A DNA stretch of 62,468 bases from Chloroflexota bacterium (GCA_022562155.1 JADFPV010000005.1:1-62468); one strand, 5' to 3'; positions 2,034 to 37,680 are shown, counted from the stretch's first letter. Program-made: numbers and translations. Notes: generated by a model from the letters alone, not told the origin.

Positions 2034-2081
2034 TGCTTCCCAAGCAGAGGGTCGCGAGTTCGACTCTCGTCTCCCGCTCCA
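2034..2081 (+). pseudogene. tRNA-Gly(CCC) 3' half, attR-like
   Basis: From TGCTTCCCAAGCA (2034-2046, anticodon stem-loop with CCC) the sequence continues through variable loop, T-arm (GAGTTCGACTC region) and acceptor strand to an encoded CCA at 2079-2081. Left of 2034 the sequence does not form the D-arm or 5' acceptor strand. The gene is therefore cut exactly at the anticodon stem. The same core recurs at 4036-4048 and 27050-27062. Confidence 0.8.
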
Positions 2082-25910: not shown

Positions 25911-26675
25911 TCACGCGGAGTTGGGGAGGACATCGGAGATCTGGGGCCTGCTGGTGTTGCGATACGCCGGAGATGCATTGTGGTCAATACGGGCGAGGGG
26001 TGAGGCCTGGCCGAGCCGCCGGGCCTGAAGCGCTTCGAGCTCGTGTAACGTGCCCTGCCAGAGGCGCTGGAGATGACCTTGGTAGCGCATGACCGTATCG
26101 AGGTCGATCTTGCCGGGGATCATCCGCCGCTCGCGACGCAATTGCATCTCTTCCTGGGTCGGATCAGGGAGGTCATTCCGTTTGCCGTCGGCCTGCTCGT
26201 AGACCGCCTCAACGCCGTAGAGGTACATCGCGCTGTTGATGAAATCCTCCTCCATAGAGGCAACGTGCATGGCTGTTACGGCTGTAATGTAGCGATTGAC
26301 CCGTCGAAACTGCCAGAGGTGGAGGGCAAGAAGCTCAGCGAGCTCACGCTCGAGGTAGCCCTCCGGCGCGACGCTTTCGATGATTCCATCCAGGTGAGCC
26401 TGCCATGCCTCCTCGGTCTCCATGCCGGGGATGACGGGGCTGGGGGACGTAATACCGTGCTTGATGGCGTTGCGGCTGACGGCCACCTTGCCGGCGGCAG
26501 TCTTGGGACCACCGCCCTTGCCCTGCCTCGATTTACCGTTCCTGGGAACCTGCTGCGCAGGTTCCTTGGGTTTCGTTGCAGAACCCTGGCCGGCAGTCTT
26601 AGTCTTTGCGTCCGCTTCGTTCTTGGGATTCACGCTGTTACCTGGTTCCGTCGCGCCATTCTTGGATTTCGCCAT
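25911..26675 (-). CDS. Hypothetical protein with GPKTAAGK / NAIKHG motif
   Basis: The 254-aa protein begins with a Lys/Gly/Asn-rich low-complexity tail (residues 1-60). The following GPKTAAGKVAVSRNAIKHGI motif is common in proteins annotated as hypothetical in mobile and repeat-rich regions. A helical core follows: ERELAELLALHLWQFRRVNR and EEMQLRRERRMIPGK. Its function is unknown. It lies between a REP cluster and the tRNA-Gly fragment at 27 kb, so it may mark the island edge. The antisense frame is a shadow. Confidence 0.6.
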   Translation of the reverse strand: MAKSKNGATEPGNSVNPKNEADAKTKTAGQGSATKPKEPAQQVPRNGKSRQGKGGGPKTAAGKVAVSRNAIKHGITSPSPVIPGMETEEAWQAHLDGIIESVAPEGYLERELAELLALHLWQFRRVNRYITAVTAMHVASMEEDFINSAMYLYGVEAVYEQADGKRNDLPDPTQEEMQLRRERRMIPGKIDLDTVMRYQGHLQRLWQGTLHELEALQARRLGQASPLARIDHNASPAYRNTSRPQISDVLPNSA

Positions 26676-26990
26676 GGCTCACCGCCTTCCAGTGCTCTCC
26701 CGCCGGCCCACTTCCTCAGAGTGGCATGGAGTCTCGTCTTGCAGAAAGAACCTGTATTGCATAAGCAGATACTCCTATAAGCTATTCCTACTCTCCATAA
26801 CGTCGGATTGTAGTACAAATGTGCGAGCATGTCAAGGTGTACGGATGTGGAATTGAGGTTGGCTCCGCGCCCGGGCCGGCTGCGCTCGCTGGTTCGCTGT
26901 CTGATAGTCTCGCTGCAGAGTAAGGAGCAACGCCGTCGGAGGCCATCCGCCTCCGTGGAAGAGCGTCCTATGTGGTTCGAGATTTGAATC

Positions 26991-27067
26991 TGGAGCGGGA
27001 GACGAGAGCCGAACTCGCGACCCCTTCGGCTGCGCTCAGGACAGGCCTCTGCTTGGGAAGCAGATGC
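26991..27067 (-). pseudogene. tRNA-Gly(CCC) 3' part with a repeat inserted in its variable region
   Basis: On the minus strand, GCATC plus the core TGCTTCCCAAGCA (27067-27050) is followed by GAGG. After a 23-bp insertion come the T-arm (GGGTCGCGAGTTCGGCTC) and the acceptor strand with encoded CCA at 26991. The D-arm and 5' acceptor strand are missing upstream of 27067. The rest of 26676-27310 contains only hairpins and no supported gene. Confidence 0.75.
27023..27045. repeat. 23-bp repeat unit inside tRNA-Gly fragment
   Basis: CCTTCGGCTGCGCTCAGGAC plus AGG interrupts the tRNA variable region. It is a variant of CCTTCGACAAGCTCAGGATG, present three times at 35426, 35501 and 35681. The tRNA reads correctly on both sides if the unit is removed. 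Confidence 0.6.
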
Positions 27068-27118
27068 GTCCCTTGCTGAGTCTGATGGAAGCCCCAGATG
27101 CCCTAATCGGCTCGCCTT

Positions 27119-27146
27119 GGCCCTAAGCCTCCAGAGGCTGAGGGCC
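27119..27146. terminator. Hairpin between island genes and tRNA scar
   Basis: Arms of 13 nt at 27119-27131 and 27134-27146 (GGCCCTaAGCCTC / GAGGCTgAGGGCC, one mismatch) lie 165 nt past the stop of the AlbA_2 gene. They are followed on the plus strand by TTTGCTT. It could end transcription from either side. Confidence 0.4.
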
Positions 27147-27310
27147 TTTGCTTCCAGCAACACACTAACACAGACTTTAGTCCGCCGGAAGGAACTTCGG
27201 CGGTGGCTATCGGACATGAGAGGCTTCAATGGATGGGGCGCCGTACCTGCGTTGGCTCAGATTGTGAGAGGACGTTGATTCGGCACGCACAAACCGTTGG
27301 CGACTTCGAT

Positions 27311-28528
27311 TTACTTGTGCAGCCGAACAATGAATCGATCGTCCTCTTCGATGAGGTCGGGCTCACTACCGTTGTGTTCTTGCATGGAAGGGATCAGTTT
27401 GAATGGGATGCCCATTCCGCGTCCCTCCACGTAGCCGTAGTCGCGAAGGAGGTCCTTGAGAAGCTCATTACGAGCAGCTCGGAATCCAACTCTCATCTTA
27501 GGCACGGTGACGGTATTAGGCAGGTTTCCAGGGGAGACTACCTCGAGCCTGTTGCTGTATATAGAGAGCTCTACGTCAGTGACAGCGATCGTGTAGTCAC
27601 GGTGAACCACCGCGTTGACGATGACTTCACGGACCGCGTCCATCGGGTAACTGGGTCGGGTACGGCGTCGACCCTCCTCAACTCGGGCGCTACTGCCCAT
27701 GTTGCGGCGTGCAAACTCCAGGGCGCGATCTATGACACCGGGCTCTGACACTTCACCGTCTTCTGTTAGCGAAGGAACTAGAGGGCCGCGGATCGTCTCT
27801 TCGTCGACCGTGTCATAATCCTTGCCCTCTCCGCTATACGCCGTGGCAGTAATCCCTGTCTGCGGGAGGAACCGTCCTGGGTTGCGACCGAAGAGAATGA
27901 GGCCCGCAACCGTGGCGACGAAGTGACCTCTATCCTCCCGAAGGATGTCGATGTTGGAGAGTAAGCGCTCCCAAGCTGGTAAGTCGGTCGTCGCTGGGTG
28001 GTCTTGTCTGCGGAGAACGGCGAAATAATCAGTTAGTCGCCGAAGGTCGAGATCCTGGATGGTAGTGCCCGGGACGGGTCTGATTTCGTGCCTGACTACA
28101 CCGGACGCTTGGTATAGGCGCTGCTCCTCTTCACGTGTCACTTCACGACAGGTCGTACCTGTTCTAATGTATGGGGTCCAGGCTCTGCCCTGTCTAGCTT
28201 TGTAAGGCTTGTTGGGTGCATCCGCAGGGAGTGTAATCACTCCCACAACCTCGCCATCGATTTCGATCGTTTCCCAGTACGGTATGGTAGGAGGCTGAAG
28301 ACGGTCTCTACACACGTTCATCACCCATTCCTCCGCCTCAGGCAGAGGGCGGGTTAGACCGCTAAGCGTACCGTCGTCTTCGACCCCTAGAAGAATGTGG
28401 CCACCCTCGAAGTTGAGTAGACAGCTTACTAGTCTGGCAAGGCGTTCTGGCAGAATGTCATCTCGTTTGAAATCTACGCCGGAACTTTCGCCGTTGGTTA
28501 TCAGTTCGAGGAGTTCGGAGCGGAGCAT
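27311..28528 (-). CDS. AlbA_2 (Schlafen-like) domain ATP-binding protein
   Basis: The 405-aa protein has an N-terminal AlbA_2 domain: ESSGVDFKRD near residue 13 and FEGGHILLGVEDDGTLSG near 40. The C-terminal GHKL-type ATP-binding domain (HATPase_c_4) has REVIVNAVVHRDY and GYVEGRGMGIPF. This architecture is often labelled putative transcriptional regulator or, wrongly, RecG-like helicase. AlbA_2 is related to Schlafen nuclease cores and is common in defence islands. It starts 2 nt after the TrlF-like ATPase gene, so the two should be co-translated and probably cooperate. Confidence 0.8.
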   Translation of the reverse strand: MLRSELLELITNGESSGVDFKRDDILPERLARLVSCLLNFEGGHILLGVEDDGTLSGLTRPLPEAEEWVMNVCRDRLQPPTIPYWETIEIDGEVVGVITLPADAPNKPYKARQGRAWTPYIRTGTTCREVTREEEQRLYQASGVVRHEIRPVPGTTIQDLDLRRLTDYFAVLRRQDHPATTDLPAWERLLSNIDILREDRGHFVATVAGLILFGRNPGRFLPQTGITATAYSGEGKDYDTVDEETIRGPLVPSLTEDGEVSEPGVIDRALEFARRNMGSSARVEEGRRRTRPSYPMDAVREVIVNAVVHRDYTIAVTDVELSIYSNRLEVVSPGNLPNTVTVPKMRVGFRAARNELLKDLLRDYGYVEGRGMGIPFKLIPSMQEHNGSEPDLIEEDDRFIVRLHK

Positions 28529-28530
28529 TG

Positions 28531-31191
28531 TCAGAAGTTGTACTTTCGACGGCGGGTCTCGAAGGCTTCTCGGCCACCTTCCAAGAGGTCTTCTACGATT
28601 TCCCTGATCGTGAGAACGTCGATCGAGCCGAGATGGCCGATAGGAACTTCAGCCCGACTCTCGGTCGCCTCTAGCGCAACTATCAACTCAGCATCGCCGA
28701 GAACTGGCACGTTGGCGTTGTGAGTCGCAAACAAGAACTGTCGACGACGCTTCTCGTCGCGCATTCTAGGAACCACCCCTTCGGTTATGAAACGATTGTC
28801 AAGGTCGTCCTCAGGCTGGTCGATGATCAATGGGCCCTCGGATTCGAGGAGAAGGAGAAGAAGCACAGCGGTCGCCTTCTGTCCTGTAGAGAGTTCATCT
28901 AACGGATGCCAGTCTGGGGCTGAGTCATCGTGAGCGGTGTTGAGCTCTGGGCTCGTTGTGTGAGGGAGCTCGAGTTCTTCGATTAGCATGCAGGCCTCGG
29001 CCGACGCCCCCGAAAGGCGTTCAGCCTGTGCCGGTGCTATTTTGTACTTGTCCACCAGCGTGGTTTGGCCCTGACGACACGCGTCGGCAAATTCGGATAA
29101 CGAAACGTCCTTCGCATCGCGCAGGATGCTCATAGCCTCGGATACCCGGCCGCCCACGTGCTCTCGGAGAAGACTAATCAGCGGCTCCCGGTCCTTTCCG
29201 AATTGAACATTGACCCGGACCCTGGGTACAAGTTGACTGGAGACTCTGTTCGCAGCCTTGTCGAGGCGTTGAAACTCCTCGCCCTTGAGGCTTTCCCAGT
29301 CGGCGACTAAGCCTCGTCGGCTCTCTTGGAGCTCGCGACGCTCGCGCGTGAATCTGTCCTCTGATTCGCGGAGAGGACGAAGTTCTTCTATCTGCGTGCG
29401 TAGCCTGACGTATTCTTCTCCGTCCACGTTGGCGGTCTGGAGTTCGCGAAGAACGGCTTCGTAGGCTTCCTGTGCCGCGGTCTTCCTGACAGTCCAGCGC
29501 GTACGTAGACTCTTTATTTCTGTCGTGGCACGTTCAAGTGCTTGTCGAATCAGACCAGATGCCTTACGGACGTCTTCCTCGAACGCGTCGAGTATATCCG
29601 TGGCTTCTGAAAGCAGATCTCGTGCTGGGAGGTCAGCAAGAGCCTTGTCGGATAGAAACGCGCTGTCAACGGGAGTCAGGGTCTCAAGGAGCTCTAGTGC
29701 TTCGGTAGACGGCTCAAGGCGTTCACTCAGAATCTTGAGAACACGCTCCTCGCGAATCAGCAGGTTTCGATCCTTGAGACGCTCCTCGACTCCAAGTTCG
29801 CGGAAACGCTCTAATATCTCTTCTAGGCCAGGAAGCGCGGCTAGTCGATCTACGATCTCAGCCTGCTCTCGGTCGATTAGTAGAATCCTGATTCTCGATT
29901 GCTCGAGGCGCATCTTGACATCAGCTTTGCGTCGATCGATTGCTGGGTCGTGGTCCAGAAACCGATGCAGGAGACGAGTCAATTTAGGCGGGCTCTTGGC
30001 AAGCTCTGACAGTTCGTGCTGCCCGTAAACTTCTAGACCTGGCAGAATGTCCTGCGGACGGAGAGGGAGGACGTTACCCTCCTCATCTCTGACGACCGGT
30101 GGGTTGGGTATGGAGCGCTCGATTAGGTAAGTCTTCTCCGACGGATGATAGGAGCGCACTGCCAACGAGATCTTAGTGCCGCTGCGCAGGACCTTCTGGA
30201 CAATGTCTTCGTGCAATTTGGTCGCTTCGTCGCCTAGCGGTTCGAGGCCGAGCGTCGCCCTCAGACTCTCGATGATCGTCGACTTACCTGTGCCACGACC
30301 ACCAATCAAAACATTGAGGTTCTCGTTGAAATGGATTGCACACTGATCGAGGAACCCTCCTTGCCAGGTAATCGAGAGCAACACGCTGTGGTCTTCCGTT
30401 TCTGGATCAGTTGACAAGCGAATGCGGGAGTCCGGATCGAGGAAGGCTAGCCGCAGTCCGTCGATCGAGACAGATGTCATCTTGATGTAGCAGGAGGTGC
30501 CGGGGTTATCGAAGTCTTCAGGGGATGAAACGTCAGATGCATTGATCACGGCAACGGGGTAGTCACGTTTGTACTGTGGATCCTTGCCGGCAAGGATTCC
30601 GCGGAACTGTTCAGGGGCCTCGGCAACAGGTCCAGGTAAGGAGACCGCCAAGAGGTTTTCATGACGCCAGGCATTGACACGCGGTTGTCCGCTCAGTTCC
30701 GCTAGGAGGCCGCTTTTACTCACAACGTGGGCGGCAATGCAGAGGCCGCCCCATTCCTTACACTTCTCGAGGAGTTCGGTAACGTCTAAGCTAGACGTTA
30801 CCGACCTGGGGGATTCATCGTATATTCCGCAGGCTCCAAGTACTCTCTCGAGGTCCAGCGGGACGTCTGGATCGAAAAGGCACAGGAAGTGGACGCCATC
30901 CTTAGTAGTCGCTTCAAAGCCGGGATACACGCGTAGCCCGGCGTCCTTGGCTGCCTCAGTGAGGCTAAGGGCTGTCTTGACTCGATGATGATCGGTAATA
31001 GCGATTACTTCTACGCTGTTTCGCTTGCACGCCTCGATTATCGCCTCGTTGTAGGTTCCCTCGTCAGTGAAGCTACTAGAGCGGCCGTGAGTGGCTAGGT
31101 AGTCGAATGGGTTCACCTGTAGGGCGCACTTGAAGAACCGTGCACCATTCGGCAATTGGAGAGCTTCTAGAGCGGAGTTGCTATTGGCCAT
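28531..31191 (-). CDS. TrlF-like protein: PHP domain fused to SMC-type ATPase
   Basis: This 886-aa protein uses the ATG at 31191; the frame opens at a TTG 15 nt earlier. Residues 30-280 are PHP-like: VIAITDHHRVKTA, YPGFEATTKDGVHFL, IAAHVVSKSG and INASDV. The first His-x-His of PHP phosphoesterases is not seen. The ATPase part has Walker A IGGRGTGKSTIIES near residue 300, a long coiled coil (about 420-690), signature-like ELSTGQKATA and Walker B PLIIDQPEDDLDN with His in LFATHNANV. It is SMC/RecF-like. Such PHP-ABC ATPases are thought to act in biological conflict. Confidence 0.75.
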   Translation of the reverse strand: MANSNSALEALQLPNGARFFKCALQVNPFDYLATHGRSSSFTDEGTYNEAIIEACKRNSVEVIAITDHHRVKTALSLTEAAKDAGLRVYPGFEATTKDGVHFLCLFDPDVPLDLERVLGACGIYDESPRSVTSSLDVTELLEKCKEWGGLCIAAHVVSKSGLLAELSGQPRVNAWRHENLLAVSLPGPVAEAPEQFRGILAGKDPQYKRDYPVAVINASDVSSPEDFDNPGTSCYIKMTSVSIDGLRLAFLDPDSRIRLSTDPETEDHSVLLSITWQGGFLDQCAIHFNENLNVLIGGRGTGKSTIIESLRATLGLEPLGDEATKLHEDIVQKVLRSGTKISLAVRSYHPSEKTYLIERSIPNPPVVRDEEGNVLPLRPQDILPGLEVYGQHELSELAKSPPKLTRLLHRFLDHDPAIDRRKADVKMRLEQSRIRILLIDREQAEIVDRLAALPGLEEILERFRELGVEERLKDRNLLIREERVLKILSERLEPSTEALELLETLTPVDSAFLSDKALADLPARDLLSEATDILDAFEEDVRKASGLIRQALERATTEIKSLRTRWTVRKTAAQEAYEAVLRELQTANVDGEEYVRLRTQIEELRPLRESEDRFTRERRELQESRRGLVADWESLKGEEFQRLDKAANRVSSQLVPRVRVNVQFGKDREPLISLLREHVGGRVSEAMSILRDAKDVSLSEFADACRQGQTTLVDKYKIAPAQAERLSGASAEACMLIEELELPHTTSPELNTAHDDSAPDWHPLDELSTGQKATAVLLLLLLESEGPLIIDQPEDDLDNRFITEGVVPRMRDEKRRRQFLFATHNANVPVLGDAELIVALEATESRAEVPIGHLGSIDVLTIREIVEDLLEGGREAFETRRRKYNF

Positions 31192-31382
31192 CAGCGACCT
31201 TGTCAATTCGTTAGCTAATCTACCATCACTATAGTGCGGGATCGTAGAGCATGCTAGCGGGAATTAGGGACAGATATGCTCTCTGCTTACTGGACGAAGG
31301 TTGGCTTGTCACCCATCCTTGCAGACCTCGTCTGGCCAAACGAATACGCAGGAGTCAACCAGGACAGGCCGTATAGGCCGCC

Positions 31383-32126
31383 TTACAGTCTGACGCCCTG
31401 GAACGCCGCCGGTCGGGGCTGGAGCGGCAGGCCCCGGTCAGCGCATGTCCGTTTTACGATGGCAACGAATAGAGCTCCACGCGACTTTCGAATCTTTCCT
31501 TCGTGTACGGCTCGCTTCACGAGACTGAGCGTCTCGAAGATGGTGTCTTTCGGGACGGTCGCTGCGAGGCGTCTGTAGTAGCTTTCGCTCTCGGTGTCCT
31601 GCAGGACCGAGAGCATCTCGTGTACCAGGCCTTCACGTTCGTCGTCCGACGGGGCCTGATGTTTCTTACTTGAAAACGTTACGTTCTGAACAACGTCATT
31701 TAGTCTTTCTTCTCTTTGTCTTTCTTCGGGTGACATTTTTGTCTTTCTGCGGGTGACATTATTGTCACCCCTGGCGAAGCGTTCCTCATAGCGGTGGGCC
31801 TCGTCGTCGCTCACGTCTTCGATGTAGAGCAAGTTGGTGTAGCCCGGTCGCTCCTCCTTGGTCAGGAGAGCAGTCTCTACGAGTTCCTCGATGTGCCGCT
31901 GGATGGTTCGGTCGGTTACAGAGCGTATGGATGCGAGCGTTTCCACGGAGGGGTACGCGAAGCCTTTGCGGAGCCCCTGGCCGTCCTGCCAGTCGAAGCT
32001 GTCGATGACTTGGTAGGTTACTTTCGCGCTGTCGGAAACATGGGAGTAGCCGAACAGTAGGACGTTCGACGTGATGACGAAGTGCTTCTTTAGCCGGTTC
32101 CTCCGGCGGAAGGTGACGTTGTCCAT
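31383..32126 (-). CDS. Winged-helix replication-initiator-like protein
   Basis: The 247-aa protein starts FVITSNVLLFGYSHVSDSA and has a helix-turn-helix PSVETLASIRSVTDRTIQRH (about residues 80-100), as in HTH_36-type replication proteins of phages and plasmids. A charged linker (residues 120-155) precedes a helical C-terminus. The linker is encoded by tandem 23-bp repeats that resemble iterons. A near-consensus promoter lies at 32192-32220. A transcriptional regulator is the alternative. The gap 31192-31382 to the next gene holds no frame. Confidence 0.5.
   Translation of the reverse strand: MDNVTFRRRNRLKKHFVITSNVLLFGYSHVSDSAKVTYQVIDSFDWQDGQGLRKGFAYPSVETLASIRSVTDRTIQRHIEELVETALLTKEERPGYTNLLYIEDVSDDEAHRYEERFARGDNNVTRRKTKMSPEERQREERLNDVVQNVTFSSKKHQAPSDDEREGLVHEMLSVLQDTESESYYRRLAATVPKDTIFETLSLVKRAVHEGKIRKSRGALFVAIVKRTCADRGLPLQPRPAAFQGVRL
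31715..31770. repeat. Iteron-like tandem repeats and palindrome inside the initiator-like gene
   Basis: Two abutting 23-bp units (31715-31737 and 31738-31760) differ at one base. A perfect-arm palindrome GGGTGACATTATTGTCACCC at 31751-31770 overlaps the second. GGGTGACA thus occurs twice in one direction and once inverted. The 23-bp period is not a multiple of three, so protein-level repetition does not explain it. The layout recalls origins inside initiator genes, as in phage lambda O. Confidence 0.65.
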
Positions 32127-32191
32127 AGATAAACAAGCCCGCGCGGACGGTCGATAGCCTTCCGGCGGGCGCGAGCAGATATGTTGACTAC

Positions 32192-32220
32192 ACTATACAA
32201 TAAAAAGGCACAGCTGTCAA
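32192..32220 (-). promoter_or_regulatory. Sigma-70-type promoter for the initiator-like gene
   Basis: On the minus strand TTGACA (32220-32215), a 17-bp spacer and TATAGT (32197-32192) are close to consensus. Transcription would start near 32185 and leave a leader of about 60 nt before the ATG at 32126. It lies between the methylase gene and the initiator-like gene. Confidence 0.7.
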
Positions 32221-32232
32221 AACCAAATACGC

Positions 32233-34596
32233 TTAGGTGAGCGGCTCTAGGCATACGACCGGCTCCCGCGCAAGCATTTCGCGCAGCGGGCTTAGATCCG
32301 GCAGTCCTAGCGCAGCCGAAATCGCATCGTCCGCAGCCTTACGTACCGGGTCCAGATGCATTTCTGGGAACGGAAGCAGAGCCCCTTTACAGACGTTATC
32401 GTAAGCCTTCGCAAGCGCATCGCGCTGCTTTGGGGACAACGACACAACATCGAGAACAGGCATGTCCTCCAGCACGGGCTTCTTGAAGTCAATCCACGCT
32501 CCCCGCGTCTCCTCCCTATGCGCGAGCATAACCAAGAGGCCGAGTGTCGAGTTCCACCACAAGACGAGAGATTTTTCAGCGGCTGCGGAGTCGGCATGGA
32601 GAGATAGTGGCCACCAGACGTTTGACAGGACTTTTTGCTTCATTCGCACAGCAGCAGCGCGCTGTGTTTTAAGCCAAAGCCTCTCAGCCAAGAGAATCCG
32701 ACCAGCCCGCGGCCAGAGAACGGTGACCTTACGCAGCGGCCGACCTTCCTTCGCTTTCGCCAGAGGAGCCAAATAGCTATTTGGCTCTGCCGCCATCGTC
32801 GTGACAGCCGTTGCATCGTGTCCCCATAGCGCAGGATAGGTAGTCTTGCCGTTTGCTAGATTGAACCCGTCGTGAATATCGCGACGGTCAGGACCTAGGA
32901 CGCCGAGCCCCTTCAGAGGTACGAGCGGAACGTTTCCGACTGTGCCTTGGCCGGGCAGGGTCACAGTCCCGACCTCGAGTTGGCTGGCAGCGCGAACTAG
33001 TTCAGCTTGCGCGAACGCGCAGGGCGGCATCCACAGGTTTTCCTTCAGTGTCACCCAGTCAGCGCGGACGGCTTCGCCAAGTTTCCTGTCACCAACTCGT
33101 ATTTCAAGTGCACCTTGGCCGCCAGTTATGTCGGGAGCGGTGCCCTCGCTTAGTGCTTGCGCAATCGCCAGCGCTTCGAACGCCGTTGTCGGGTTCTTCC
33201 ACAGATTGACGCAGACCACTTTCGCGTCCGCCTCGCCATCGTCAACTTTTCGCCCTATGACCAGCACCTCACTGAGGCTGGTGTTATCCGAGAAGTTCCA
33301 CCGCTCGGGGTCGTGGCTGCATATCAGGTACTCTAGGCGATATCGTAGACCAAATAGCGCACGCGTCTTGCCCCAGGCTACGCCGCTGAGTAGTGCTTTG
33401 GGCAACACCAGGGCCATGCGGCCACCTTCCTTCAAGTACTTATCGCCAATGGCGACGAACACAGAGCCAAGCCCGGCTGTTGCGCTTGCCAAAACACCTG
33501 GAACTTTCAGCAGCCGCGAAAGTTCCTTTTGCATCGGAGCGCGCTCGGCGGCAGGCAACGAACCAAATAGCAGGTTCCCGCCTACACTACGAGTGAACGG
33601 GGGGTTCATCACGCAAAGATCGATGTCTGGGGCTGAAGCAGTCTGTCGCTGTACGTCGCCTGCCCCCGTCACTTGTTCGGTAGCTTCTGCAAGGCCGAAG
33701 AGATCAACACTGATTGCAACGTCGCGGTCTCGAAGAAATTCGATACTTCCCAATCTCTTATGCGTACCGCCGTGCGGCATGCTGTAAAGCCGCATACCGT
33801 GGAACGATACCTCGGGTGCCCTTATAGCGAGGGTTGATGCAGTTAGGTGCAGCGCTGACGGAAGCACATCATAGCCATATATGACGTCCTCAATTAAGAC
33901 TTGGTGCAGATCGCTCAACTTGGGTTCGTCACCGCTGCTTCCGCACTCTCGAACGTAGTTGTCGGCCAGGGCTTCTGCTGCCGCCATGAGCAACGTGCCC
34001 GTACCACAGGCGAAGTCGACAACGCGGAAATCGTCGCTCATCTCCTCCAGGTCTGACCAATCGACTGGCCACGACTCAGGATCAAGAGCAAGCTTCAATA
34101 GTAGAGTCGCTGCTGGCACAGAGGTGTAGTAAGTCCCCAGGTACTTCGCTTCTTCCAGCAGCTGGTGATAAATTCGACCCATCAAGTCATGGCGCAGAGC
34201 CGCGCGCTGTCCGACGATGTAGAGAGCGGCCTTCGCCAAGTCTCTCAGCGCTGCGTTAACATCCGGGCCAGATGAGAGGCCAAGTAGCACATTTCGCGCG
34301 ACACGGAAGATAGGGACGTAATTTATGTCGGTGAGAATAAACTGCCAGTGGTCGGCGAACGCCGTTATCACGTCGCCACCACGGAGCGTCTTTCTTACGG
34401 TCTGAACTTGTGAGTTGTGGATGGAGAGTATTTCTTGGAAGGCCATGGCGTTGACTACTGTCAGCCCCGCGATTCTCGCAACCGCGTGCTCTTGTCGCGC
34501 ACTAAGGTTCAAGCCGGACCTAGCCACGGCGACGTCTCCGCTTCGGTGTCGCGTCCCCAGTAGTTTCTCCAGCCATGCCCAAAGCTTGGGCAGCAC
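32233..34596 (-). CDS. N6-adenine DNA methyltransferase (HsdM/type IIG-like)
   Basis: The 787-aa protein has SAM motif VVDFACGTGTLLMAAAEAL (residues about 192-210), the catalytic motif CVMNPPF near residue 330 and the HsdM-type GGRMALVLPKALLSG after it. The helical N-terminus resembles HsdM_N. The long C-terminus (residues 500-780) has room for target recognition, for example LRKVTVLWPRAGRILLAERL. It overlaps the upstream small nuclease candidate by 77 nt. Modification half of a restriction system is the likely role. No separate specificity subunit is present. Confidence 0.8.
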   Translation of the reverse strand: MLPKLWAWLEKLLGTRHRSGDVAVARSGLNLSARQEHAVARIAGLTVVNAMAFQEILSIHNSQVQTVRKTLRGGDVITAFADHWQFILTDINYVPIFRVARNVLLGLSSGPDVNAALRDLAKAALYIVGQRAALRHDLMGRIYHQLLEEAKYLGTYYTSVPAATLLLKLALDPESWPVDWSDLEEMSDDFRVVDFACGTGTLLMAAAEALADNYVRECGSSGDEPKLSDLHQVLIEDVIYGYDVLPSALHLTASTLAIRAPEVSFHGMRLYSMPHGGTHKRLGSIEFLRDRDVAISVDLFGLAEATEQVTGAGDVQRQTASAPDIDLCVMNPPFTRSVGGNLLFGSLPAAERAPMQKELSRLLKVPGVLASATAGLGSVFVAIGDKYLKEGGRMALVLPKALLSGVAWGKTRALFGLRYRLEYLICSHDPERWNFSDNTSLSEVLVIGRKVDDGEADAKVVCVNLWKNPTTAFEALAIAQALSEGTAPDITGGQGALEIRVGDRKLGEAVRADWVTLKENLWMPPCAFAQAELVRAASQLEVGTVTLPGQGTVGNVPLVPLKGLGVLGPDRRDIHDGFNLANGKTTYPALWGHDATAVTTMAAEPNSYLAPLAKAKEGRPLRKVTVLWPRAGRILLAERLWLKTQRAAAVRMKQKVLSNVWWPLSLHADSAAAEKSLVLWWNSTLGLLVMLAHREETRGAWIDFKKPVLEDMPVLDVVSLSPKQRDALAKAYDNVCKGALLPFPEMHLDPVRKAADDAISAALGLPDLSPLREMLAREPVVCLEPLT

Positions 34597-35137
34597 GTTC
34601 GACGCTACCCGGCTCGGGCAGAACTGCGCGGGCGAATCCTTCTACCGCCTGACTAAGCACCTCGACAGCACGGGCCACCACATCCTCTTCCACGAGTTGT
34701 TCATACGTACGCCGCAGTAGCTGGGAAAGGTGCTCCAAGTTGCCTTCCACCCAGCCCGTGTCACCGCTCTCGCTGAACACCGCGATTCGGAGAGGCGCTA
34801 CCTCAAGCCCCCTTTTCAGATCCTTGAATGGGGTCTTTCGCAACTCTTTAGGATATAGGAGCGCAACGGCGAGATGACTTACGCCTTCTTCCACGCGTTG
34901 AGCAGCATTCGCCCGAACCTCTTTTGCGGCACCTGGATGGTCGTCAACCTTTCCCTCCACTACTGTTCTGAGGCCATGGAAGGTCACAATCACATCCGGC
35001 ATCCGCCTCTGACGGGCTGTTGTCTGCAGGATTTGTTCAGGGGCCGAGGCGATGCCTCGCTCATGCAGTAGCTGAGCGAGCAACACGTTCAAGACTTCTT
35101 CACGGTGGGTCTCAGTAGCCACTATGGTGGCCCCCAT
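34520..35137 (-). CDS. Small PD-(D/E)xK-like nuclease candidate paired with methylase
   Basis: The 205-aa protein has RRMPDVIVTFHGLRTVVEGK (residues about 43-63): a PD followed after about a dozen residues by ExK, the restriction-nuclease core pattern. Helices before (HREEVLNVLLAQLLHERG) and after fit the fold. The Arg-rich end PKRRRRRG may bind nucleic acid. It is the first gene of the operon and overlaps the methylase gene by 77 nt. A nuclease or DNA-binding partner is inferred from motif and context; the match to a family was not checked. Confidence 0.5.
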   Translation of the reverse strand: MGATIVATETHREEVLNVLLAQLLHERGIASAPEQILQTTARQRRMPDVIVTFHGLRTVVEGKVDDHPGAAKEVRANAAQRVEEGVSHLAVALLYPKELRKTPFKDLKRGLEVAPLRIAVFSESGDTGWVEGNLEHLSQLLRRTYEQLVEEDVVARAVEVLSQAVEGFARAVLPEPGSVERAAQALGMAGETTGDATPKRRRRRG

Positions 35138-35339
35138 TTCGCGCCCATCACCGCCGAGTGTACCACCAGCGCGTCTTAGCAGCCCTCTCGTCAGCTAGGG
35201 TGCGCGCGCGGCGTCATTTTGCGCGCCGCCGAAACGAGGAACGCCACACGTCGCATAATGCGCGATGAGCGACGCGGGCCGTCAGGTTGGCGTAGCCTGC
35301 ACACGGTAATGCCCATCAAACGTCACTTGGCCGATAGCC

Positions 35340-36020
35340 TGCCGAACTGCGGTCTATAGGCCCGAACCGGTGGCCGATAGTTGCGGCAGGGCGTTCGGCT
35401 ACTGGCACAGCCAGTAGCTTGGAATCCTTCGACAAGCTCAGGATGGAACGCGGGTAACGCCGTGGGCGCACGGCTACTGGCACAGCCAGTAGCTTGGAAT
35501 CCTTCGACAAGCTCAGGATGGCTACTGCAAAGGCAGTAGCTTGCGCGTTCTTCTGGCCGGCCCTGCGGGGCGGGCGCATGGCCATGCGCCCCTACATCGC
35601 GGCGGCGGTAGCTTGCGCGTTCTTCTGGCTGGCCCTGCGGGGCGGGCGCACGACGAATGCCAGAGGCAGTAGCTTGGAATCCTTCGACAAGCTCAGGATG
35701 GCTACCGCCGTAGGGCGGTAGCTTGGAAGAAGCTTCGCTTCTTCTGGATACAGGAGCGATTCGGGACGAGGGGCCGTACCCCTCGGGGGCGGGCGCATGG
35801 CGACTGCTGTGATGCAGTCGCTTGGAAAGAATGGCTACTGCCTTTGGCAGTAGCTGCGCTTCTTCTGGCCGGGCCGGTAGTGGCGGCGGGGCCGCAGGCC
35901 CCGAACGGCCCGGCAGCGGGCCACGGCACAACGCCCGAGCGGCACGGCGCAGGTCCTCGGGCGCGTCAAGAGGCGCCCCTACACCAGCCCCAAGGGGTGG
36001 GGGGTGCCGGGTTGCACACG
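35340..36020. repeat. REP-like palindrome cluster, right of the island
   Basis: No gene is supported in 35138-36027. Three copies of CCTTCGACAAGCTCAGGATG (35426, 35501, 35681) alternate with CTACTGGCACAGCCAGTAG-type palindromes (35399, 35474) and the palindrome GGGCGCATGGCCATGCGCCC (35572-35591). A 38-bp stretch at 35560-35597 is identical to 25841-25878. A 202-codon open frame crosses it but repeats HPELVEGF and is an artefact of the units. Confidence 0.8.
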
Positions 36021-36027
36021 GGCGAGG

Positions 36028-37680
36028 CTAGCGCTCCACGAGGGCCGAGAGCGTATCCTTGCGCTGAAGGAAGTTAAACCAGAGGCCGTCGATCTTGACT
36101 GACCGCACGTCGTACAGCTGCCAGAGGCGGAGGTCGGCGAACAGGGCGTTGCGGGCTACAACAGGTGAGGGGACGGCGGCGAGCACGCGGAACGCCTCCG
36201 TTGTCAGCGGCCCCGGCTGGGCGTCGTTCGTGATGATGATTTCAGGCAGGACGTTGTCTAGGACGTAGTCGATGTTGTACTTCTCGTGGCCGGCGAGCCC
36301 GGTGCCGAAGTCCGGCACATCGGAGTGCGCGATGACAACATCGTTCAGGCCGAGCAGATCGAGGACATCTCGCTCGCCGTAGTACCCGATGGCTCCTACG
36401 GCGAAGGCGGCGATGGTGTAGTCCGGGGGCGTGTTGTCGGACAGCCACCTTCCCAGCACTTCGCGTCCTCGCTGGGCCTGTCGTTCATGCTCGACGGGTC
36501 CAGCGAGTTCGAGCGACGCGTGGAACAGCGACACCGCGCCTAGCGTGAGCACGGCCGCGGCGATCACGCCCGACCGGATGGCCGAAGTAGAGAGTCGACC
36601 GAGAAGAGTCGCGAGTCCTGCAAGCCCCGCGACGTAGACCAAAGGCAAGATAGGGATGATCATGCGCCCATGCGGGAAGTCGTCACCGCCTTCGATTACG
36701 ACTCCTGCGAGCATGGCCGCGGTCAGCACGAGAACGTACGCGGCATCCGATCGCAGGCGGACGTTCGTAAGGAGAACGGCCACACCGCCTAAGAGAGGAA
36801 GGAGTTGGTAACGGAAGGCGTACGTCCAGACGTAATCGAGGCCTCGTTCGTAGAGCGCGGACGTCGGCTCCACCTTCGCGTAGAACGTGTTTGGCAGGAG
36901 ATGGTCGTAGTACGTATAGCGCCATGCGAAGTAGGAACCGTAGAGAACCAGGAGCACCGCCGACCACGACGCGAGTCGCAAAAGCGCCTCGCGGCGGTCG
37001 CTAGCGAAGCCCGCGCGAATAACGAGGAAGGCTCCCGAGACCGCGATCGCGATCAGCCCCTCCGGTCGGGTCATGGCCGTCGCGGCCAGAGCCACGGCTG
37101 ACCAAGGCAGGCCGCCTGCGCGCTGTTCGCGCAAGAACAGAAAGGCACTCAGCGTGAGCAACGCCATGAACGCCGCCGTCTCCATGCCACTGAAGCCCCA
37201 GAACGCTACGCCATCCGTAAGCGCGAGCGCGATGATGGCCGCCGCGATGACCAACGGGCTCGCGAAGTCGCCGGCGGGTTCATCATCACTCCACATGCTC
37301 CAGGTCCGGTGCATGATCAGCATGGTGCCGACAACGGCAGCGAGCCCCAGGACACGCGACATCTCGACTACGTCGAACCCAATCTTCGCCAGTCCTGCGT
37401 GGGTTCCCATCCAGAGGAACGTTGTGTATCCCTCCACACGGCCGTCGCTGTTCCAATTCGGCCCTTGTCCGTCGGCCAGATGCTGTGAGTAGCGCAGCGT
37501 GATCAATGCGTCGTCCGCGTAGAAGTCGAAGTAGAAGGGGCCGTGGATGAGCAAGATTGCGGTTGCGCCGAGTAGCGCGATGGCGGCCGCGAGAAGGCGC
37601 TGTTGGCGTGCGAGCAGGACGCCGCCTGCCGTTGCGATGGCCAGTAGCGAGACGGTGAGGACGTAGAGCGGAAAGGACAT
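36028..37680 (-). CDS. GT-C family (AftB-like) membrane glycosyltransferase, copy 1
   Basis: The 550-aa polytopic protein has 10-12 helices. The catalytic-type acidic pair sits in FYADDALITLRYSQHLADG followed by GRVEGYTTFLWMG, matching AftB-like GT-C enzymes that use polyprenyl-phosphate sugars at the outer membrane face. FWGFSGMETAAFMALL and AMTRPEGLIAIA are further family motifs. The C-terminal soluble part has DLLGLNDVVIAHSDVPDFG. A tandem paralog of the same length lies 3 nt upstream. The acceptor glycan is unknown. Confidence 0.75.
   Translation of the reverse strand: MSFPLYVLTVSLLAIATAGGVLLARQQRLLAAAIALLGATAILLIHGPFYFDFYADDALITLRYSQHLADGQGPNWNSDGRVEGYTTFLWMGTHAGLAKIGFDVVEMSRVLGLAAVVGTMLIMHRTWSMWSDDEPAGDFASPLVIAAAIIALALTDGVAFWGFSGMETAAFMALLTLSAFLFLREQRAGGLPWSAVALAATAMTRPEGLIAIAVSGAFLVIRAGFASDRREALLRLASWSAVLLVLYGSYFAWRYTYYDHLLPNTFYAKVEPTSALYERGLDYVWTYAFRYQLLPLLGGVAVLLTNVRLRSDAAYVLVLTAAMLAGVVIEGGDDFPHGRMIIPILPLVYVAGLAGLATLLGRLSTSAIRSGVIAAAVLTLGAVSLFHASLELAGPVEHERQAQRGREVLGRWLSDNTPPDYTIAAFAVGAIGYYGERDVLDLLGLNDVVIAHSDVPDFGTGLAGHEKYNIDYVLDNVLPEIIITNDAQPGPLTTEAFRVLAAVPSPVVARNALFADLRLWQLYDVRSVKIDGLWFNFLQRKDTLSALVER

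What the first reader, a model, noticed from the sequence alone, without database searches (positions are those of the whole stretch)
26991..35200. Compact accessory island with nuclease, methylase, replication-like protein, PHP-SMC ATPase and AlbA_2 protein
Seen: five co-directional genes between a tRNA-Gly fragment and a REP cluster. They are a small PD-(D/E)xK candidate and N6-methylase overlapping by 77 nt, a winged-helix protein with its own promoter, then a PHP-SMC ATPase and AlbA_2 gene 2 nt apart. Known: each family occurs in defence or mobile regions. Inference: a mobile defence island combining restriction-modification with a second conflict module. I know of no named system with this exact set.
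Basis: partly seen in the sequence, partly recalled or inferred. Interest (0 to 1): 0.75.

Follow-up and report, generated by a model that had tools for sequence, protein, structure and literature searches.

The report
Hotspot island with two defence modules
A 9-kb insert at a variable chromosome site carries two separately inherited, probably anti-phage gene pairs (a two-piece restriction enzyme, and a large ATPase paired with a Schlafen-like protein), so it is not one new five-gene system, but the second pair is widespread, often sits inside restriction operons, and has no name in the libraries searched.

Summary
The five genes are real, and the insert is foreign. Family relatives lack it (99 nt in its place), and same-genus relatives carry other cargo at the same site, in one case a type I restriction gene. 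The five genes do not form one system: none of 80 TrlF loci from other genomes carries the nuclease, methylase or winged-helix gene, and the nuclease-methylase pair occurs alone elsewhere. Three parts are present. (1) A PD-(D/E)xK nuclease plus N6-methylase, a split form of a ~990-aa fused, type IIG-like enzyme; the true overlap is 8 nt, not 77. (2) An orphan replication-initiator-like winged-helix protein. (3) TrlF-AlbA_2, a two-gene operon found across many phyla, often inside type I or III restriction operons, unnamed in PADLOC and NCBIfam. In the window's TrlF clade the PHP motif DxHxH has become AxQxN, while every AlbA_2 partner keeps Schlafen-like acids; another clade shows the reverse. 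Each change happened once on the tree, so this is suggestive only. Best reading: a restriction enzyme plus a portable second-line module that senses DNA ends and acts through the Schlafen-like subunit. No phage test exists. The tRNA-Gly remnant marks one side only.

The parts
34520..35137 (-). Nuc: small PD-(D/E)xK nuclease, 205 aa (D48, E61, K63; also E34)
   Evidence: ORF; no Pfam family; motif conserved in 29 homologues; N-terminal domain of longer fused ORFs in other genomes
32233..34527 (-). MTase: N6-adenine methylase, 764 aa from the conserved GTG start (the longest ORF begins at 34596)
   Evidence: Pfam N6_Mtase 2.8e-7; motifs DFACGTG and NPPF; start by comparison with L123/L124
31383..32126 (-). 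HTH: orphan winged-helix protein resembling phage replication initiators
   Evidence: HTH_36 1.9e-6; phrog_391 replication initiation O-like 3.4e-8; only one weak partial match in 399 other phylum genomes and none in plasmids or viral contigs
28531..31206 (-). TrlF: PHP + SMC/Rad50-type ATPase, 891 aa (possible ATG start at 31191)
   Evidence: NCBIfam NF045780 502 bits, cut-off 350; AF2 pLDDT 88; motif I AxQxN instead of DxHxH
27311..28528 (-). AlbA_2: Schlafen-type N-terminal domain + GHKL-like (HATPase_c_4) C-terminal domain, 405 aa
   Evidence: PF04326 2.9e-15, PF13749 2.1e-18; AF2 pLDDT 90, Foldseek to 3lmm, SLFN14, SLFN11 and weaker to the SAMD9 tRNase
32192..32220 (-). sigma-70-like promoter before HTH (TTGACA-17-TATAGT)
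   Evidence: consensus match only
26991..27062 (-). decayed 3' half of tRNA-Gly(CCC) with a 24-nt REP-like insert; possible old attachment site, one side only
26853..36027 (.). extent of the insert judged from same-genus flanks (left homology ends near 26852, right resumes near 36031)
   Evidence: empty junction in L117 4702-4801
35389..35900 (.). REP-like repeat cluster at the right edge

Best explanation
A chromosomal cargo hotspot (between an ArgRS/DUF402-side gene and a membrane-protein pair) has captured two independent defence modules and an orphan replication-initiator-like gene. Module 1 is a restriction-modification enzyme of type IIG kind split into a PD-(D/E)xK nuclease and an N6-methylase, translationally coupled: it would methylate self DNA and cut unmodified DNA (inferred). 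Module 2 is the TrlF-AlbA_2 operon: TrlF, an SMC/Rad50-like ATPase with a PHP domain, is proposed to sense abnormal DNA (free ends, as reported for its relative Ppl) and to switch on the partner AlbA_2, a Schlafen-like predicted nuclease that would cut RNA or ssDNA and stop phage growth. In this clade the PHP motif-I ligands are lost, so the Schlafen-like site of AlbA_2 is the likelier effector. Shown: gene content, hotspot, modularity, recurrent TrlF/restriction linkage, residue patterns. Inferred: every biochemical step.
For: Empty site and alternative cargo in relatives, including HsdR at the same point in G001. TrlF absent from the same genus and family and from all but two order members, where matches are only partial. 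TrlF-AlbA_2 adjacent and co-directional in nearly all of the 48 loci where an AlbA_2 homologue was found, among 80 loci from many phyla. At least 25 of 80 TrlF loci have restriction genes within 8 kb, about ten as complete Mod-TrlF-AlbA_2-Res; restriction families lead the Pfam tally of neighbours; annotated example HsdR-TrlF-AlbA_2-HsdS-AAA-HsdM. Nuc+MTase equals a fused ~990-aa enzyme. AlbA_2 E14 and D19 align with rat SLFN13 E205/E210 by position. 17 of 17 AxQxN-type TrlF partners keep the acids; 23 of 23 EQK partners sit with intact DxHxH PHP. Ppl mechanism from PMC12904381.
Against: No phage-resistance or enzyme data. The PHP and AlbA_2 changes each occurred once on the tree, so the reciprocity is not independent evidence. 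Twenty AxQxN TrlF proteins have no AlbA_2 homologue in the held neighbourhood, so TrlF may work without it; the other predicted PHP ligands (H73, E98, H106, H160, D225) stay almost invariant, so the PHP domain may still be active. Seven pairs keep both sites. The MTase target-recognition region was not tested. The rate of restriction neighbours has no random-locus control.
Confidence: 0.55

Rival explanations
1. The five genes are one new defence system working together.
For: Co-directional, compact and in one insert; TrlF is often next to restriction genes.
Against: None of 80 TrlF loci has Nuc, MTase or HTH homologues; Nuc-MTase stands alone in L123, L124 and L154; HTH is essentially an orphan; HTH has its own promoter-like site.
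Confidence: 0.08
2. TrlF is itself the effector, a Ppl-like PHP exonuclease with an altered metal site, and AlbA_2 is a nucleic-acid-binding regulator rather than a nuclease.
For: Five other predicted PHP ligands are almost invariant; orphan TrlF without AlbA_2 is common; Ppl is an exonuclease through its PHP domain (PMC12904381); many AlbA_2 partners have E to Q at position 19.
Against: Loss of D28, H30 and H32 of motif I in exactly this clade; AlbA_2 keeps Schlafen acids in all 17 partners of this clade.
Confidence: 0.3
3. A decayed integrative element that entered through tRNA-Gly(CCC), whose cargo is no longer functional.
For: tRNA-Gly remnant at the left edge; many such remnants in this genome and in G005.
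Against: No att copy at the right edge (best 25/48, shuffled maximum 28); no integrase in the insert; the intact tRNA-Gly(CCC) found lies on another contig; same-genus inserts at this site have no such fragment; all five reading frames are intact.
Confidence: 0.07

Closest known systems
TrlF family (NCBIfam NF045780)
   Same: Full-length match, 502 bits over a cut-off of 350; PHP + SMC-like ATPase; annotated on many plasmids
   Different: The window clade lacks PHP motif I (AxQxN); paired with AlbA_2
Ppl anti-phage protein
   Same: PHP + SMC-like ATPase architecture, homologous ends (PADLOC 1e-40, NF042955 4.8e-51)
   Different: Far below the family cut-off (174 of 1000 bits); Ppl is a single gene with an active PHP exonuclease (PMC12904381)
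Type I and III restriction operons with embedded TrlF-AlbA_2
   Same: Same TrlF-AlbA_2 pair beside a methylase
   Different: Here the neighbour is a split type IIG-like pair, with an HTH gene between
Type IIG restriction-methylation enzymes
   Same: PD-(D/E)xK + N6-methylase, ~990 aa in total; fused relatives in the same phylum
   Different: Split into two coupled genes in the window, G040 and G053
Schlafen/SAMD9 tRNases and PDB 3lmm
   Same: Fold and the E-x4-E/D positions
   Different: Single AlbA_2 domain plus a GHKL-like C-terminal domain; activity unknown

Membership tests
TrlF family (NF045780) | Score above curated cut-off over the full length | tested here: met
   502.4 against 350 bits, residues 20-890
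Catalytic PHP domain | PHP motif I DxHxH for metal binding | tested here: not met
   A28, Q30, N32 in the window and in a 37-member clade; canonical in the other clades; the TrlF model itself accepts both forms
Ppl | Score above NF042955 cut-off | tested here: not met
   173.7 against 1000 bits
Type IIG restriction-modification | Nuclease and N6-methylase motifs | tested here: met
   PD-x12-EGK; DFACGTG and NPPF
Type IIG restriction-modification | Nuclease and methylase in one chain | tested here: not met
   Two overlapping genes here and in L123/L124; fused in L154 and others
Type IIG restriction-modification | Sequence-specific methylation and cleavage | not testable with these tools
   needs long-read methylation data or enzyme assay
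SLFN_AlbA_2 (PF04326) | Score above gathering cut-off | tested here: met
   57.3 against 25.3 bits
Schlafen-type nuclease | Catalytic acids equivalent to SLFN13 E205/E210 | tested here: met
   E14 and D19 at the aligned positions; third acid probably D51 or D52 (inferred); activity not tested
One five-gene system | Genes co-occur in relatives | tested here: not met
tRNA-integrated mobile element | Two att copies and an integrase | tested here: not met
   one fragment only, no integrase in the insert
PARIS, Lamassu, Septu and other PADLOC systems | Named component set present | tested here: not met
   only partial ATPase-region matches to AriA, LmuB, PtuA and GajA; AlbA_2 matches only pAgo-type profiles partially

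The most novel reading that the evidence does not exclude
TrlF-AlbA_2 is an unnamed, phylum-spanning two-subunit defence module that rides in restriction operons, and in which catalysis has moved between the partners: PHP-active with a weakened Schlafen site in one clade, Schlafen-active with a broken PHP in the window's clade.
Probability: 0.3. Interest if true: 0.68.

Novelty: new variant of a known kind. Interest (0 to 1): 0.48.

Why it matters
The TrlF-AlbA_2 pair recurs across bacteria and archaea, commonly within restriction operons, yet neither PADLOC-DB 2.0.0 nor NCBIfam describes it as a unit. If it backs up restriction by acting on cut or end-bearing phage DNA through a Schlafen-like nuclease, it would link restriction enzymes to the nuclease family used by animal antiviral proteins (SLFN11, SLFN13, SLFN14, SAMD9), and the site-swap hypothesis gives a simple mutational test.

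Tried and rejected
PADLOC and NCBIfam gave no whole-system assignment. Literature searches for TrlF with phage or ATPase and for AlbA_2/Schlafen with PHP found no paper on the pair; only PubMed Central open papers were searchable and DefenseFinder was not available. The HTH protein was followed in 400 phylum genomes, plasmids and viral contigs without a real homologue. A programmed frameshift at the Nuc-MTase junction was considered and dropped: relatives have a plain ATGA coupling. A matching tRNA fragment at the right edge was sought and not found. The reciprocal PHP/AlbA_2 pattern was put on a tree and found to rest on one change each, so I do not count it as statistical evidence. AlbA_2 relatives in viral contigs were fetched but their neighbours were not analysed.

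Full report
Observation. Five co-directional ORFs lie on the minus strand: Nuc 35137-34520, MTase 34596-32233 by longest ORF, HTH 32126-31383, TrlF 31206-28531 and AlbA_2 28528-27311. Pfam gives N6_Mtase, HTH_36, AAA/SMC plus PHP, and SLFN_AlbA_2 plus HATPase_c_4; Nuc has no Pfam family. NCBIfam calls the fourth gene TrlF with 502 bits against a cut-off of 350. The island has 55-58% G+C against 60-65% around it. The tRNA-Gly(CCC) remnant is real but degraded and not called by ARAGORN or Rfam. The repeat cluster is at 35.39-35.9 kb, and the winged-helix gene has an 11/12 sigma-70-like promoter.

Hotspot. In a same-family genome (G003, L117) the sequence runs from window 25603 to window 36053 with 99 nt between; G004 is empty too. 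In same-genus G002 the same flanks hold 8.3 kb with ABC-2 permeases, an ABC ATPase, a TetR-like and a response-regulator-like gene. In same-genus G001 the same left flank is followed at once by a type I HsdR-like gene up to the contig end (these cargo genes were named by eye from their sequences). The insert is therefore about 26853-36027. No TrlF match was found in the same genus or family; in the order there are two partial matches, and one full-length but distant (28%) one in the class.

Two modules, not one system. None of 80 TrlF loci from other genomes carries Nuc, MTase or HTH. Nuc and MTase occur as an adjacent pair among unrelated genes in G040 and G053, and as one 992-aa chain in G364. 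Homologous 950-1000-aa ORFs with PD...ExK and NPPF/Y occur elsewhere in the phylum. In G040 and G053 the two genes meet at ATGA; the matching GTG in the window is at 34527, an 8-nt overlap, so the reported 77 nt is a start-codon artefact. HTH resembles phage replication initiators and is otherwise almost without relatives.

TrlF-AlbA_2. An AlbA_2 homologue was found in 48 of the 80 loci, usually immediately downstream and often overlapping or within about 20 nt; several other contigs end too soon to tell, and in L012 it lies elsewhere in the locus. At least 25 of 80 loci have restriction genes within 8 kb by BLAST with a limited set of queries, about ten as Mod-TrlF-AlbA_2-Res. In 81 neighbouring proteins the leading Pfam families are ResIII, N6_N4_Mtase, DEAD and RE_endonuc, with HsdM and HSDR also present. 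A Klebsiella plasmid shows HsdR-TrlF-AlbA_2-HsdS-AAA-HsdM as annotated (AlbA_2 there named RNA-binding domain-containing protein), and a Chitinibacter plasmid N6-methylase-TrlF. There is no random-locus control for these rates. I take the recurrence across type I, type III and, here, a type IIG-like pair as evidence that TrlF-AlbA_2 is a portable partner of restriction systems.

Active sites. In the TrlF alignment PHP motif I, DxHxH in most clades, is AxQxN in a clade of 37 including the window (SH-aLRT 100), while H73, E98, H106, H160 and D225 stay almost invariant. The AlbA_2 partner model (pLDDT 90) has a Schlafen-type N-terminal domain and a GHKL-like C-terminal domain, nearest to 3lmm, then SLFN14 and SLFN11, with weaker matches to SLFN13 and the SAMD9 tRNase domain. 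E14 and position 19 align with rat SLFN13 E205/E210 if the chain carries a 13-residue tag (residue roles from general knowledge and from the E209A and E211A structures listed). Partners of AxQxN-type TrlF keep both acids in 17 of 17; 23 partners of DxHxH TrlF have Q at 19; seven DxHxH partners keep both. Each change is single on the tree, so the reciprocity is a hypothesis with one event per side. Twenty AxQxN TrlF proteins have no AlbA_2 homologue nearby, which speaks against AlbA_2 as the only effector.

Mechanism. Ppl, the nearest studied relative, is described in PMC12904381 as a 3'-5' ssDNA exonuclease held off by NTPs and triggered by nucleotide depletion plus 3'-OH ends. By analogy, TrlF would sense ends and nucleotide state, including ends made by a restriction enzyme, and the partner would execute. 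TrlF's model matches SMC, MukB, JetABC, RecF/RecN and Rad50 heads. All functional steps are inference.

tRNA-Gly fragments. The 48-nt 3' half of tRNA-Gly(CCC) occurs about ten times in this genome and about 19 times in G005, often in same-direction series 0.9-3.5 kb apart with one or two genes between. One copy in G005 is followed by an integrase-like gene and then an HsdM-like gene. This resembles tycheposon-like or integron-like arrays and deserves its own study. It explains the remnant near the island but does not show that the island came that way: only one edge has it.

Verdict. An accessory defence hotspot carrying two known kinds of module. The novel part is the widespread, unnamed TrlF-AlbA_2 pair and its clade-specific loss of PHP ligands.

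Noticed in passing
window 2034-2081 (+), 26991-27062 (-); L104-L109, L172-L177: The 3' half of tRNA-Gly(CCC), from the anticodon arm to CCA, is repeated about 10 times in this genome and about 19 times in same-family G005, in same-direction series with 1-2 genes between copies; several copies share an upstream arm like 'ttaacaattaggcccaacccaa'. It looks like an array of small tRNA-derived cassettes (tycheposon-like). The reversed-pattern control gave 0.
   Followed up: partly
L175 6268-9154 (G005:C63): One tRNA-Gly fragment is followed directly by a tyrosine-integrase-like gene (330 aa) and then a type I HsdM-like gene: a candidate autonomous element of the array. In 19 related genomes its full-length relatives are at most 36% identical; only short fragments reach 67-72%.
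   Followed up: partly
L104 13323, window 26991, L110, L112: Several tRNA-Gly fragments carry a 20-50-nt REP-like insert in the variable-loop region, as if a small mobile repeat had entered the remnant repeatedly.
   Followed up: no
L116 4709-7190, L114 8999-16436: The same hotspot holds a type I HsdR-like gene in G001 and an ABC-2 transporter and regulator cluster in G002, so the site takes varied cargo.
   Followed up: partly
L052, L053, L062, L072, L075, L078: Recurrent four-gene operon Mod-TrlF-AlbA_2-Res: type III restriction systems with an embedded TrlF-AlbA_2 pair.
   Followed up: partly
window 25911-26675 (-): A 254-aa protein with a 'GKVAVSRNAIKHGI' type motif and no Pfam or PHROG family sits at the left side of the hotspot in G000, G001 and G002 but is absent from the empty site in G003.
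   Followed up: no
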